Below, piece after piece: positions 5,597-58,392 of a stretch of DNA of 64,000 bases; the first letter of the stretch is position 1, and every line of letters starts with the position of its first letter. The position numbers and the translations under genes are program-made. Origin of the DNA: Pararhizobium sp. IMCC3301 (GTDB taxonomy: Bacteria > Pseudomonadota > Alphaproteobacteria > Rhizobiales > GCA-2746425); contig NZ_CP132336.1 of the NCBI RefSeq assembly GCF_030758315.1, forward strand, positions 2,199,001 through 2,263,000, given 5' to 3'. The notes below the pieces were generated by a model. The model made no database searches. It saw nothing but the letters and a program-made list of their open reading frames with translations, and was not told the origin of the DNA.

Positions 5597-7104
5597 GCGC
5601 CATGGATGCTTTTTTCAACGGGTTCATGGCCCTCACCGATCCCGGCCTGATTGCGCTGCTGGTCGCGGCAACCTTTGGCGGCGTCATAATCGGCGCACTC
5701 CCCGGCCTCAATGCAACCACCGGCGCGGCACTGCTTCTTCCGTTCACCCTGACCATGCAGCCTGTCGCCGCGATCTCGATCCTGACCGCTATCTACTGCT
5801 CGGCGACGTTCGCCGGTGCCATTACCGCAATTCTGATCAACACACCCGGCACATCGGCCAGTGCGACGACCTGCCTTGACGGCTATCCGATGGCATTGCG
5901 CGGCGAGGCTGGACGCGCCCTTGGCCTTGCCGTGGTCTCCTCAACCTTCGGCGGCGTGTTCAGCGTCATTGTTCTAATGCTGGCTGCACCGATTCTGGCT
6001 CGCGCCGCCTATAATTTTGCACCGCCGGAGTATTTCGCCCTGACCCTGTTTGGCCTGTCAATGCTGGTCAGCGTTGGCGGCGGTTCGCCGATCAAGAATC
6101 TGATCGCCGGCGCTTTTGGCATTCTTCTCGCCACGCTCGGTACCGATCTTCTGACTTCGGTCAAACGCTTCACCTTTGATGTCCCGGAACTCTATGAGGG
6201 GATCGGTTTTGTCCCGGTCATGATCGGGGTTTTCGGGATTTCCGAGCTGTTGTCACAAGCCTCGTCGCTGCATCTGAAGCGCAAACAGATCACCATGAAG
6301 GCGATCAAACTGCCCTCTCGCGAGGATTACCGCCGGGTCTGGAAAACCATTCTGCGTTCCTCAGGAATCGGTACCTTTATCGGAATCCTGCCCGCCGAAG
6401 GCGCTACGGTCGCCTCGATGATCGGTTACAATGAAGCGCGGCGCTGGTCGAAGACGCCGGAAGAATTCGGACATGGCGCCATTGAAGGCATTGCCGGGTC
6501 GGAAGCTGCCAACAATGCCGCTACCGGCGGTGCAATGGTGCCGACCCTGGCGCTTGGCATTCCCGGAAGCCCGACCGCAGCGGTGATCCTTGCCGGATTG
6601 CTGGTCCATGGTCTGCGCCCCGGACCCACCATGTTCACCGAACAGGCCGATTTCGCCTTTGCCATTTTCTGGTCGATGCTGTTCGTCAATCTGCTGTTTC
6701 TCGGCATTGGGCTGTACGGCGCAAAAATCTTTGCCCGCGTCACATTGATCCCGGTTCCGATCCTGTGGCCCACCGTCTTCATCTTTTCGATTGTCGGCGC
6801 TTATGCGCTGGATCAGTCGATGTTCGATGTCTGGATTGCACTGATTTCTGGCATTGTCGGATATTTCATGCGGGTATACGGGTTTTCCGTTGTGCCTCTG
6901 GCCATCGGTCTGATCCTTGGTGGCATGCTTGAGCAGCGCCTTGGCCAGTCGATGGTGATGCTCGACGAGCAGTGGTGGATGATCGCGACCCGGCCGCTGT
7001 CGGCGTTTTTCCTCATTCTCACAGCCTTTGCACTGTTCGGACCGGCGCTGTGGAAATTCATCGTCCGGTCACGGATGAGACTCAGGGAAGGATCTCCATC
7101 ATGA
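5593..7104 (+). CDS. tctA: TTT-family large permease TctA
   Basis: 503 residues, GTG start overlapping the tctB stop. About twelve hydrophobic segments and the family blocks [19 protein letters not shown] (near residue 36) and [20 protein letters not shown] (near residue 300) identify the TctA large subunit, which carries the substrate in symport with a cation. The order tctC-tctB-tctA is canonical. The start codon of the dehydratase gene overlaps its stop (ATGA at 7101-7104), so transport and catabolic genes are coupled. Confidence 0.94.
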
Positions 7105-55505: not shown

Positions 55506-55670
55506 ATGAATCAATCAAAAATCCTGATCATGTGCACTCTCTGCTTTGAACAATCAGAGCTTGAAGTTCCGTTGAACAAACTGAGAGACGCTGAGGCTAC
55601 TGTTCATGTGGCGACGCCGGACGGTAATTTCATCACCAAAGAAGGCGAACACGAACGTCACGCCGCTTGA
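55506..55670 (+). pseudogene. Truncated DJ-1/PfpI-family protein
   Basis: 54 residues from ATG 55506. It begins KILIMCTLCFEQSELEVPLNKLRDAEATVHVATPDG in pieces, the first beta-alpha-beta unit of DJ-1/PfpI proteins, then breaks off at GEHERHAA with a TGA. A normal member has about 180 residues and a nucleophilic Cys near residue 100, which is absent. No continuation in other frames is visible before the next gene at 55773, so the rest has been deleted. It was found by reading the gap and is shorter than the usual gene size. Confidence 0.7.
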
Positions 55671-55772
55671 TATTGAAACGGGTGGGTCGGCGGCTTTTTG
55701 TGCCTGACTGCTGAACAACGCAGTCCGGCCCATGTCAGATCGGACCCGCTGATCACTGGTAAGGAGATTCTT

Positions 55773-56222
55773 ATGAGCCATTTTGACATACCGCACAAAG
55801 CCTGGGTCGTCGTTGCCGACGGAGAGAAGGCGCTGTTTCTGTACAATGAGGGCGACGAGGTCTATCCCCATCTCAAAGTGTTCCGCGAGGAACATCAGGA
55901 TAATCCACCCAATCGGGAACAGGCAGCCAACCGCCCCGGCCGGCTCAATGATGGACCAGGTCCGCATCGCAGTGCTGTGGAGGACACCGACTGGCACAAA
56001 TTGGAGAAAACCAGATTTGCCCATGAATTGTCGGATATTCTCTACCGGCAGGCGCACAAACACCGCTTCGATCATTTGATCATTGTCGCACCGCCCGCCA
56101 CGCTTGGCGACCTTCGCAATGAGCTTCATCAGGAAGTCACTGAAAAAATCATCGGCGAGGTTGATAAAACGCTGACCAACCATCCGATCGCCGAGATCGA
56201 ATCCATTCTAGCGGGCCACTGA
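55773..56222 (+). CDS. Host-attachment / baeRF-like protein
   Basis: 149 residues from ATG 55773 with AAGGAGATT upstream. The first strand KAWVVVADGEKALFLYNEGD, the polar linker with NRPGRLNDGPGPHRSAVEDTDWHKLEKTRFAHELSDILYR and the IIVAPPATLGDLRNELH block are those of the family named for plant attachment in Agrobacterium, related to archaeal/bacterial release-factor-like domains. Its biochemical role is unknown. Confidence 0.85.
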   Translation: MSHFDIPHKAWVVVADGEKALFLYNEGDEVYPHLKVFREEHQDNPPNREQAANRPGRLNDGPGPHRSAVEDTDWHKLEKTRFAHELSDILYRQAHKHRFDHLIIVAPPATLGDLRNELHQEVTEKIIGEVDKTLTNHPIAEIESILAGH

Positions 56223-56572
56223 CATCCAACATCCGCACTGCATCCAAGCCGTGTCTGGCCTGAAAAACGTTGCAGCGGGCAGAATTTTTGACCAAGTCCG
56301 CAATTTTTCACCGCTGTTTCCAGACACGGTTTTGTCACGGGACTACACACAATGGTGAGGCTGATTGGCATTTCCGTGAGCTGGGAAATCGGCATCCGCA
56401 GAACTCCGCCATTGTGCCAAAGCGCTCTCACGGCGCTGTGAATGTTCAGTCTGAGCGAACGGATTGTCCCTGTTTAAATTGCAAATACAGTTCCCTAAAT
56501 CATCGTCATCGAGAGGCATTCACCACTCGCAACAAACCAAATTAACGAAAACCAATAACAAGGAATAAGAAA
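56223..56572. other. Gap before the secreted-peptide genes, with long-range inverted repeat
   Basis: About 350 bases without a recognisable gene. CCGTGTCTGG (56249-56258) and CCAGACACGG (56330-56339) are perfect inverted repeats flanking 71 bases, which contain two ATTTTT blocks in similar contexts. The promoter of the peptide genes should lie in the right part; I see no EcfG box. Confidence 0.45.
56249..56339. repeat. Inverted repeat with 10-base arms, 91 bases overall
   Basis: Arms CCGTGTCTGG and CCAGACACGG are exact complements. The element could be a long hairpin, a small mobile remnant or a chance pairing. No flanking target duplication is evident. Confidence 0.4.
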
Positions 56573-56734
56573 ATGACTTTTCGTAAAATCGCAGCTCCTA
56601 TCCTGATCCTCAGTTCAATCGTTCTTGGCGCTTCTGCTGCCAGTGCCGGTGTTTACAACCCGGCCAATGACAGCTCGCCTGATGCCATGACCCCCGGCTT
56701 TACCGGCCTGGCTCTGGACCTGTCCGGCAAATAA
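56573..56734 (+). CDS. Secreted 53-residue peptide, copy 1
   Basis: 53 residues. A clear signal peptide (MTFRKIAAPILILSSIVLGASAASA, pattern basic-hydrophobic-Ala-x-Ala) with likely cleavage after residue 25 leaves a 28-residue mature peptide starting GVYNPANDSSPDAMTPG and ending LDLSGK. AAGGAATAAG precedes the ATG. No family is recognised. Copy 2, 131 bases downstream, encodes the same protein except for one residue. A perfect palindrome GATCAGCTGATC (56739-56750) follows the stop. Confidence 0.75.
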   Translation: MTFRKIAAPILILSSIVLGASAASAGVYNPANDSSPDAMTPGFTGLALDLSGK

Positions 56735-56865
56735 GCTGGATCAGCTGATCCCTTCCCCGAACCGGATGCCGATGGCTCTCGCCAGCTTTCCTCCCAAAGT
56801 TGATGAAGCCAGCGGCACCCGGTTCAAACCAGATTAAATGTCGACCAAAAACAAGGAATAAAACA

Positions 56866-57027
56866 ATGACATTCTCAAAGATCGCAGCACCTATCCTGAT
56901 CCTCAGTTCAATCGTTCTTGGCGCTTCTGCTGCCAGTGCCGGTGTTTACAACCCGGCCAATGACAGCTCGCCAGATGCCATGACCCCCGGCTTTACCGGC
57001 CTGGCCCTGGATCTGTCCGGCAAATAA
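56866..57027 (+). CDS. Secreted 53-residue peptide, copy 2
   Basis: 53 residues from ATG 56866, within a longer frame that opens at 56800. It differs from copy 1 only at residue 4 (Ser for Arg); nucleotide differences are a few third-codon changes plus the first codons, showing selection or very recent duplication. The ribosome-site block ACAAGGAATAA is also duplicated. A hairpin CGCAACA-N7-TGTTGCG at 57038-57058 follows the stop and may end the transcript. Confidence 0.78.
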   Translation: MTFSKIAAPILILSSIVLGASAASAGVYNPANDSSPDAMTPGFTGLALDLSGK

Positions 57028-57037
57028 GCCGGAACAG

Positions 57038-57058
57038 CGCAACAGCACGCTTGTTGCG
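57038..57058 (+). terminator. Hairpin after the second peptide gene
   Basis: CGCAACA and TGTTGCG form a 7-base-pair stem with a 7-base loop, 11 bases after the stop. No T-run follows, so termination is tentative. Confidence 0.35.
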
Positions 57059-57290
57059 GCAAGGATCTCGCCGCCTTTACATTGTTCGCCCCTAGAGTTT
57101 GCTCTTGGGCCGGGCGGCGGGATCCGAGCACCAAAACTGAATACGCAGCTGAGCAATCAGACGGACCAAGCCGCCAAGAACAATAATAATAATCGCGACA
57201 TGCCAGAGCTGACCAGAGCTGATGCTCCACCTTTCAAAGCCCTCCGACCCTGTCGGCGGGCTTTCCTGTTTTGGTGACCCACGATCGGGT

Positions 57291-58241
57291 TTATCCGGGA
57301 TAAACCAGTCTGAAGCCCTGATGCGGGGATGTACTGTCAGGAGAGTTTCCGTTTCTGGCGGCAATGCGATAGCGAAAGCAATAGCTGACGTGGCACATAA
57401 ATGAGCCGCCTTTGGAAATCTTGTACCCGGCCATTGCACGCTCCCGCGCTCTGGCACTTTTGCGTAAAGACCGCAGCCTGTACGGATTGCGGGTCCATTC
57501 CCAGACATTCCCGCACATATTGTAGAGCCCGAAATCATTTGGCGCAAAGGACTGCGCCGGAGCGGTTCTTAAATAGCCGTCAGCGCCGCTATTGGTTTCC
57601 GGAAAGCGCCCCTGCCAGATATTGCAGGGTTGGAACGCATCATCATCCGGCGCCCGGTTGCCCCAGGGATATTCAACATTGTCACGCCCGCCGCGCGCCG
57701 CATGTTCCCACTGCGCCTCGGATGGCAATTCACCCTGGGCCCAATGGGCAAAGGCGTTGGCATCATTCCAGGAGACCTGAACGACCGGATGATCGGGATG
57801 CCAGGCCTGCTCGGTTTCCGGTCCGTTGATACGCCGCCAGTCCGCGCCATCCACACGCCGCCACCATGGCGTTCGCAAAACACCCTGAGTCTGTGTGATG
57901 TCTTCCGGCACATCCGTGTAAAATACGAAAGACCAACCGAAACGCTCGGCCTCGGTCACATAGCCGGTTGCATCAACAAATTGTCTGAACCTTTGATTAG
58001 TGACAGTCGTCGCATCAATTTGAAACGCCTTCACAGTGACACTGCGTGGCGGGCCTTCTTCATCCTCAGCGATGACGATCTTGTCGGTGCCGATTTGCGC
58101 CATACCGCCTTCAATTGAGATCCGTGGCGGCGGTGCCGTTTCAAACACCGATAGATCATGAGAGCTTGCAACCGGAGCTGGGGACGTTCCGCTGCGGTGC
58201 GGGCAGCAACTGCCAGCGCTGTCATCTGAATGATCCGGCAC
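57291..58241 (-). CDS. Formylglycine-generating enzyme (sulfatase-modifying factor)
   Basis: 316 residues from GTG 58241; the frame is open to an ATG at 58307. The GTG is preferred because the SCCPHRS cysteine segment then lies near the N-terminus, as in related proteins. The FGE fold is complete: GTDKIVIAEDEEGPPRSVTVKAF, NMCGNVWEWT and the copper-binding active-site pair in SFMCHVSYCFRYRIAARNGNSPDS (split motif, Cys283 and Cys288). Thus it is a true FGE and not only a C-type lectin-like relative. It oxidises the Cys of CxPSR in sulfatases; the sulfatase at 1059-2552 carries such a motif. Confidence 0.9.
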   Translation of the reverse strand: MPDHSDDSAGSCCPHRSGTSPAPVASSHDLSVFETAPPPRISIEGGMAQIGTDKIVIAEDEEGPPRSVTVKAFQIDATTVTNQRFRQFVDATGYVTEAERFGWSFVFYTDVPEDITQTQGVLRTPWWRRVDGADWRRINGPETEQAWHPDHPVVQVSWNDANAFAHWAQGELPSEAQWEHAARGGRDNVEYPWGNRAPDDDAFQPCNIWQGRFPETNSGADGYLRTAPAQSFAPNDFGLYNMCGNVWEWTRNPYRLRSLRKSARARERAMAGYKISKGGSFMCHVSYCFRYRIAARNGNSPDSTSPHQGFRLVYPG

Positions 58242-58392
58242 GACGTTGATGATCCTGTTTCTCAAGCACGTTAGTATGTGTAGCCGGCAGTATCCTGGAA
58301 CCGCCATCCATAAGATAGAATGCAGATTGGTGGCAAGTCTTGTCGCGCTCGCCGCTGGAGCTTTTCCTGACTACACTCAATCGGGAAACGGT

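What the first reader, a model, noticed from the sequence alone, without database searches (positions are those of the whole stretch)
56573..57027. Tandem genes for a 53-residue secreted peptide of unknown family
Two adjacent genes encode proteins with 52 of 53 residues identical, each with a clear signal peptide and a predicted 28-residue mature peptide (GVYNPANDSSPDAMTPG...). The codons differ mainly at third positions, so the protein is under constraint or the duplication is recent; even the ribosome-site block is duplicated. I recognise no family. They could be export signals, surface peptides or envelope-stress factors.
Basis: seen in the sequence. Interest (0 to 1): 0.7.

Follow-up and report, generated by a model that had tools for sequence, protein, structure and literature searches.

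The report
Repeated exported-peptide genes with RNA hairpins
A little-known genus of alphaproteobacteria carries several very similar genes for one tiny exported peptide, set in short arrays separated by RNA hairpins; the peptide has barely changed during evolution, but what it does is unknown.

Summary
In detail: two 53-codon genes (56573-56734, 56866-57027), 52/53 identical, signal peptide plus 28-residue mature part. They are one array of a larger family. The same genome holds six copies at three loci and a longer protein with three repeats of the motif. All five held genus genomes carry 4-10 copies, 34 read in all; samples of 392, 384 and 397 genomes outside the genus gave only short, chance-like matches. 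The mature core is almost frozen while synonymous sites saturate (15 synonymous, 0 non-synonymous changes in 23 codons between two genomes). Whole units of about 1 kb (control region, genes, hairpin spacers, terminator) recur at unrelated loci, 90-96% alike within G001 and G003 but about 84% between them, and arrays group by genome: concerted evolution, though one G000 array is only about 81% like its sisters. In 16 of 19 spacers a stable hairpin exposes CCUCCC, an anti-Shine-Dalgarno sequence, as in cuckoo/CcsR small RNAs, whose full definition is not met. Best reading: an exported peptide made from co-evolving arrays, possibly also yielding hairpin RNAs. Both functions are inferred.

The parts
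56311..56572 (+). Conserved control/5' region of the array; holds TGTGAATGTTCA-N8-GAACGGATTGT at 56437-56467
   Evidence: Homology with the second G000 array begins at 56311; between arrays of G001 and G003 it begins about 265-300 nt before the first ATG. The element occurs at only 3 places in the genome with up to 3 mismatches allowed, all of them arrays, 0 for the reversed control. That it is a promoter is inferred; the simple sigma-70 scan found nothing on this strand.
56573..56734 (+). Peptide gene 1 (53 aa, R4)
56735..56865 (+). Spacer with stable hairpin (56759-56825) exposing CCUCCC as its loop at 56790-56795
   Evidence: -46.8 kcal/mol for the spacer, z -5.45, 0 of 200 shuffles as good; loop fully unpaired; found by covariance model R1, built from G001-G003 hairpins, at E 9.2e-6
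56866..57027 (+). Peptide gene 2 (53 aa, S4)
57028..57150 (+). 3' region after the last gene with a strong hairpin GGAUCUCGCCGCC...GGGCGGCGGGAUCC
   Evidence: -56.3 kcal/mol, z -3.99; similar stems follow the last gene of other arrays of G000-G003
57236..57274 (+). Probable terminator AAAGCCC...GGGCTTTCCTGTTTT closing the unit
   Evidence: A like stem with a T-rich tail is seen in the six array ends printed (G000 two, G001 two, G002 one, G003 one); homology with the second G000 array ends at 57274. G004 ends were not examined for it. The simple terminator scan did not flag it.

Best explanation
The two genes are one array of a genus-specific family of transcription units of about 1 kb. A unit has its own control region, one to three genes for the same small exported peptide, a stable hairpin, mostly with a C-rich loop, after each gene, and (seen in G000-G003) a terminator. 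Shown from sequence: the family and its copies, purifying selection on the mature peptide, hairpins kept in place while stem sequences differ, units more alike within than between genomes. Inferred: the peptide is exported by the Sec route and its mature 28 residues act outside the cytoplasm through a specific contact (a partner, or self-assembly), since nearly every core residue is fixed and copies are kept alike. Inferred with less confidence: the hairpins either protect the mRNA or are released as anti-Shine-Dalgarno small RNAs of the cuckoo/CcsR type. The first two rivals below are the two versions of this last step.
For: 34 short copies in 5 of 5 genus genomes. 24 of 34 share one 23-residue core; 5 more (all G000) differ by Y>F and K>L, 4 by one or two residues, 1 has Ns. 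Mature core, G000_3563 against G004_C83_732: 15 synonymous differences at 16.3 sites, 0 non-synonymous at 52.7; signal peptide dN 0.33 in the same comparison. Units homologous from about -265/-300 to +655 or more, 95-96% within G003, 90-96% within G001, about 84% between them, flanks unrelated at most loci. A tree of 11 array heads groups by genome. Hairpin z-scores -2.8 to -6.4 for the 8 spacer/3' segments folded; CCUCCC fully unpaired in 16 of 19 spacers; 13 of 13 stem pairs kept between two G004 spacers, 4 of them changed, one on both sides. In the last 22 nt before the ATG, AAGGA is present in 32 of 34 copies and GGAGG in 0 of 34.
Against: No transcript, protein or phenotype data. G000_3563 is only about 81% identical to the other two G000 arrays, so homogenisation is incomplete there; G002 and G003 differ by only about 9-11%, so 84% is not a general between-genome figure. 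Covariation in the 7-sequence alignment is weak (1 pair of 19 changed on both sides; 35 of 500 shuffles reach the score), and two same-genome spacer comparisons lose 4 of 39 and 3 of 29 predicted pairs. G003_4144 has CCCCAACC in place of CCUCCC, and two G004 spacers lack the intact motif (one has an N). Hairpins with CCUCC loops also occur by chance: 7 in the 64-kb window, both strands, this one included. Codon adaptation is not exceptional against 53-codon segments. AlphaFold gives the mature part low confidence (mean pLDDT 66 overall, blocks 66, 60, 52, 47 after residue 20), so a folded or polymeric form is not supported.
Confidence: 0.7

Rival explanations
1. Peptide only (first version of the best explanation): the arrays exist to make one exported peptide, and the hairpins merely stabilise the mRNA or separate the genes; the C-rich loop has no target.
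For: Hairpins of this type are found only at the arrays: all model R1 matches with E below 0.01 in the genus lie there, sense or antisense. Hairpins after the last gene of G001-G003 arrays have other C-rich loops (CCCCUAA). One array has lost CCUCCC.
Against: A stabiliser needs no fixed loop, yet CCUCCC is kept in 16 of 19 spacers, including two of G004 where the stem sequence is largely different.
Confidence: 0.5
2. Dual-output arrays (second version): one transcript gives both the exported peptide and several anti-Shine-Dalgarno hairpin RNAs, like the R. sphaeroides ccaF1-CcsR1-4 locus but with an exported peptide in place of a DUF1127 protein.
For: Repeated hairpins, variable stems, mostly constant aSD loop, multi-copy arrays with small ORFs; published sRNAs share this design (PMC3927594, PMC10253847, PMC7143759; passages read). 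The arrays' own ribosome sites lack GGAGG (0 of 34).
Against: None of 34 downstream stretches holds the full CCUCCUCCC motif; 7 hold CUCCUCCC. No Rfam match over cut-off in 55600-57500. DUF1127 genes of the genus lie elsewhere. No expression data.
Confidence: 0.35
3. The units are a mobile or repeat element (MITE-like) carrying passenger ORFs.
For: About 1 kb repeated at unrelated sites with fairly sharp edges. An ORF that I recognise by eye as an IS66-type transposase remnant lies about 4.5 kb from the second G000 array (L006:10499-10846).
Against: Two positions (beside the TRAP transporter genes and beside hisG) are shared between genomes, and selection on the peptide is strong. No terminal inverted repeats were noticed by eye in the ends printed; neither a terminal-repeat search nor a transposase search was run.
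Confidence: 0.08
4. The peptide is a secretion-monitor or leader peptide that controls downstream genes by ribosome stalling.
For: Short, signal-bearing ORFs followed by RNA structure.
Against: What follows an ORF is another copy of itself or, after the last one, genes that differ among arrays; a terminator-like stem closes the six units examined.
Confidence: 0.05

Closest known systems
Cuckoo RNA / alpha-r14 (NfeR1) / SmelA075-SmelA099 and CcsR1-4 small RNAs of Alphaproteobacteria
   Same: Several hairpins in a row, variable stems, anti-Shine-Dalgarno loop, multi-copy; CcsR1-4 are co-transcribed with a small-protein gene (PMC3927594, PMC7143759, PMC10253847; passages read)
   Different: Here the hairpins alternate with peptide genes, the partner is an exported peptide and not a DUF1127 protein, the full CCUCCUCCC is absent in all 34 stretches, and no small RNA has been shown. 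The paper that defines the cuckoo family (PMC4615179) and the CcaF1 paper (PMC8034643) were not held
Multi-copy small exported proteins of unknown function in rhizobia (DUF680; recalled, not tested by alignment)
   Same: Short, signal peptide, many copies per genome (from memory)
   Different: No Pfam model matched at E up to 5; I did not check that DUF680 is in that copy of Pfam
Multi-copy rRNA operons (as a pattern of evolution; general knowledge)
   Same: Whole transcription units kept alike within a genome
   Different: Protein-coding, about 1 kb, 3-4 units per genome as far as seen, found here in one genus

Membership tests
Cuckoo / CcsR-type sRNA locus (CIN1) | Repeated hairpins with anti-SD motif unpaired in the loop | tested here: met
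   CCUCCC fully unpaired in 16 of 19 spacers between genes
Cuckoo / CcsR-type sRNA locus (CIN1) | Full loop motif CCUCCUCCC | tested here: not met
   0 of 34 downstream stretches; 7 of 34 have the 8-mer CUCCUCCC
Cuckoo / CcsR-type sRNA locus (CIN1) | Neighbouring DUF1127 gene | tested here: not met
   17 DUF1127 loci in the 5 genus genomes, none within about 25 kb of an array on the same contig; 6 of these 17 loci (about 3.1 kb each) have any CCUCC-loop hairpin, about the rate of the window (7 in 64 kb)
Cuckoo / CcsR-type sRNA locus (CIN1) | Processed, abundant small RNAs acting on ribosome sites | not testable with these tools
   No transcript data
Any Pfam or NCBIfam protein family | Score over the curated cut-off | tested here: not met
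   0 families at E up to 5 for the short peptide and the three-repeat protein
PHROGs phage protein family | Significant profile match | tested here: not met
   Short peptide: best E 0.057, unknown function; three-repeat proteins of G000 and G001: none
Sec-exported peptide | N-terminal basic stretch, hydrophobic core, A-x-A cleavage site | tested here: inconclusive
   Read by eye from the aligned sequences; AlphaFold helix 3-25 fits a signal peptide; no predictor run

The most novel reading that the evidence does not exclude
A single co-evolving gene cassette that releases two products from one transcript: an extracytoplasmic peptide whose core is frozen across a genus, and anti-Shine-Dalgarno hairpin RNAs that retune translation in the same cell, so that an exported signal and an internal RNA response are expressed in fixed ratio.
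Probability: 0.25. Interest if true: 0.8.

Novelty: new variant of a known kind. Interest (0 to 1): 0.58.

Why it matters
A 23-residue core that stays fixed while synonymous sites saturate must do something exact, yet it matches no described family and was found in one genus only. The arrays give a compact test case for two open questions: what multi-copy micro-exoproteins of Alphaproteobacteria do, and whether anti-Shine-Dalgarno hairpin arrays can be coupled to an exported peptide rather than to a DUF1127 protein. Concerted evolution of whole protein-coding transcription units of this size in a bacterium is also uncommon outside rRNA operons (general knowledge, not searched in depth).

Tried and rejected
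Distant homologues: weak hits in G044 and G083 (E 0.002-0.003, 37-39% over 38 residues) share only a TPGFTG-like stretch, without the NPAND core and without a recognisable signal peptide in the aligned part; rejected. Partial matches of 10-14 residues in G015, G203, G558, G602 and G1052, one in G002 (C14, 11 residues) and PDB 21vl_E (E 0.04, 13 residues) were taken as chance. Viral contigs and plasmids: no relative. Rfam: two snoRNA matches far below cut-off on the other strand; rejected. High expression from codon usage: the six short copies and the long protein of G000 rank 40-47 of 48 against whole window ORFs, but the short copies lie below the 95th percentile of 53-codon segments, so no claim is made. 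Simple promoter/terminator scan: nothing on the + strand. An ECF-type element (GAAAC-N16-CGTT) before the three-repeat protein was seen by eye in two genomes; no control was run; a lead only. The AU tests gave very large likelihood differences for a 440-column alignment; I do not rely on those p values. Papers: no paper in the held library has IMCC20636 or SPDAMTPG; one search for concerted evolution of small secreted multicopy peptides listed one unrelated paper (listing only). Passages of PMC12559287 (Caulobacter sponge RNA) were read and not used.

Full report
The pair and its relatives. The window holds two 53-aa ORFs at 56573-56734 and 56866-57027 within a 195-nt direct repeat of 92% identity. 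The window is C1:2199001-2263000 of a 4.58-Mb single-contig genome, G000. That genome has three array loci: the window (2 genes), C1:1257 kb (3 genes) and C1:3563 kb (1 gene). The last lies near a 139-aa exported protein (150 aa from an upstream TTG) with three diverged repeats of the motif, roughly G-[VT]-F-N-x-A-[NT]-[DE]-x-[SA]-P-D-A-x-T-P-G-x-T-G-x-A, between groEL and hisG. groEL and the his genes I name by eye from their translations; groES is confirmed by Pfam. Searching G000 and 100 relatives with the protein gave 7 genomes with matches: the five genus members G000-G004 and two weak hits, rejected. G001 has the contig length of CP018226.1 (Rhizobiales bacterium IMCC20636), G002 a contig length of JANSWZ010000005 and G004 one of NVXB01000052 (NORP22), so I take them to be those records (inference).

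Distribution. A 24-position profile of the core (A1) was run on 397 genomes of the order, 385 of the class and 398 of the phylum; the samples overlap. The order sample held the five genus members, all matched at E below 1e-15; the class and phylum samples held G000 of the genus. Outside the genus, in 392, 384 and 397 genomes, only matches to 10-14 positions at E 0.0004-0.005 appeared: 2, 2 and 1 genomes (limits 0.01, 0.01 and 0.001), which I take as chance. Whether other genera of the same family exist among the held genomes cannot be read from the capped lists. Plasmid and viral collections gave nothing. Pfam and NCBIfam gave nothing at E up to 5.

Selection. In all, 34 short copies were read: G001 10, G003 7, G004 7, G000 6, G002 4 (G002 and G004 are drafts, with copies at contig ends). 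The 23-residue core VYNPANDSSPDAMTPGYTGLAKD is identical in 24; five G000 copies have F and L for Y and K; four others differ at one or two residues and one has Ns. By the Nei-Gojobori count, G000_3563 against G004_C83_732 has 15 synonymous differences at 16.3 sites and 0 non-synonymous at 52.7 in the mature core, while the signal peptide has dN 0.33. I chose nine representatives out of the copies without N; all 36 comparisons are and the largest mature dN is 0.107.

The unit. Arrays inside G003 are homologous from about 280-300 nt before the first ATG to about 600-660 nt after it in two-gene arrays, 95-96% identical, non-coding parts included; inside G001 the pieces are 90-96% identical over a like stretch (95.8% over 942 nt for 257/263 kb, 92.3% over 1,156 nt for 1413/3586 kb). 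Between G001 and G003 the figure is about 84%, between G002 and G003 about 89-91%. In G000 the window array and the 1257-kb array are about 95% identical, but the single-gene array at 3563 kb is only about 81% identical to them, so it has largely escaped homogenisation. Units end in a GC stem with a T-rich tail, printed for six arrays of four genomes. A block TGTGAATGTTCA-N8-GAACGGATTGT lies before the first gene; in G000 it has exactly three sites with up to three mismatches allowed, all at arrays, and none for the reversed control. Two positions are shared among genomes: beside hisG in all five, and beside the TRAP transporter gene dctM in G000 (with an FGE-sulfatase-type gene between), G001, G002 and G003 (dctM and FGE tested by Pfam in the window only). 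Even so, a tree of 11 of 14 array heads groups arrays by genome; the G003 group and the pair of G000 arrays are starred, the G001 group has 86/92 and the G000 triple 84/74. Holding the hisG-side or the TRAP-side arrays together was rejected (p values not to be taken literally). This fits gene conversion among units. In G001 the first genes of the arrays share one signal-peptide version and the later genes others, so conversion seems to respect position in the array.

The hairpins. The spacer after gene 1 in the window folds at -46.8 kcal/mol (z -5.45), with CCUCCC as the six-base loop. Nine other segments were folded in that call: the seven other spacer or 3' segments had z -2.8 to -6.4, and the two 5' segments of the window 0.59 and -0.90, so the 5' region shows no unusual structure. 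CCUCCC is fully unpaired in 16 of 19 spacers between genes (the G002_C18 spacer is counted as internal because the next gene starts at the contig end). The exceptions are G003_4144 (CCCCAACC), G004_C83_732 (a different spacer that contains the control block) and G004_C83_1052 (an N in the loop). Stems differ strongly between G000, G001-G003 and G004, while fold and loop stay. A formal count on seven G001-G003 hairpins gave 100% of cells paired but only one of 19 pairs changed on both sides, and 35 of 500 shuffles reach the covariation score. Two G004 hairpins keep 13 of 13 pairs with four changed; against this, the G000 window spacer compared with the second 1257-kb spacer breaks 4 of 39 predicted pairs, and two G003_203 spacers break 3 of 29. 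Covariance model R1 finds the hairpins at arrays of G000-G003, none in G004, and elsewhere in the genus only two weak matches at E 0.28 and 0.39. A simple search for CCUCC-loop hairpins finds 7 in the window on both strands, of which the array hairpin is the most stable.

What it is like. Published alphaproteobacterial sRNAs have several hairpins with variable stems and CCUCCUCCC in every loop (SmelA075, SmelA099; PMC3927594, passages), occur in several copies (alpha-r14/NfeR1, PMC7143759, passages), and in R. sphaeroides are cut by RNase E from a transcript that also encodes the small DUF1127 protein CcaF1 (PMC10253847, passages). The arrays resemble these in layout, but two defining features were tested and not met: the full nine-base motif (0 of 34) and a DUF1127 neighbour. 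I therefore do not file them as cuckoo RNAs. The peptide's own ribosome sites (AAGGA in 32 of 34, GGAGG in none) would be poor targets of a CCUCCC loop, as one would want if the RNA acted on other mRNAs; this is suggestive only.

Function of the peptide. The mature part is short, turn-rich (N-P, S-P-D, T-P-G), without cysteine or histidine, and predicted without confidence by AlphaFold (mean pLDDT 66). Near-complete fixation of core residues plus similar copies favours a specific contact (a receptor, an envelope partner, or self-assembly) over a space-filling role. The three-repeat protein, found in G000, G001 and G003 and not matched in G002 and G004, suggests the motif is a module that works in one or several copies. 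No direct evidence picks among these.

Noticed in passing
L007:5920-6372 (-), G000 C1:3563.9-3564.4 kb: A longer exported protein with three diverged copies of the peptide motif and two cysteines, between groEL and hisG (named by eye); related proteins in G001 (L043:5963-6385) and G003 (L044:8984-9406). GAAAC-N16-CGTT seen by eye upstream in G000 and G001 resembles an ECF sigma promoter; G003 has CGTG.
   Followed up: partly
L041:5268-5603: In NORP22 (G004) a gene beside an array starts with a like signal peptide (MTFSKIAASVLILGSVAFGISSANA) but has an unrelated continuation, perhaps a frameshift or a new mature part.
   Followed up: no
L052:14975-15123 (-) and L052:5875: In G004 C83 the control block lies between gene 1 and gene 2 of the array; gene 1 and the separate copy at L052:5875 share a different upstream sequence (CCCCTAGGTGTATCACCGAATA).
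   Followed up: no
window 57291-58307 (-): An FGE-sulfatase (formylglycine-generating type) gene sits next to the array in G000 between it and dctM; a sulfatase gene lies about 2-4 kb from the second array (L006:1602-3062) (Pfam).
   Followed up: partly
L006 about 5798-5821 (-): In the first spacer of the three-gene array the loop itself is duplicated (CTCTCCTCCCAAAGCTCTCCTCCCAAAG), giving two CCUCCC in one loop.
   Followed up: partly
L006:10499-10846 (-): An ORF that looks by eye like a remnant of an IS66-type transposase, about 4.5 kb from the second G000 array; not tested.
   Followed up: no
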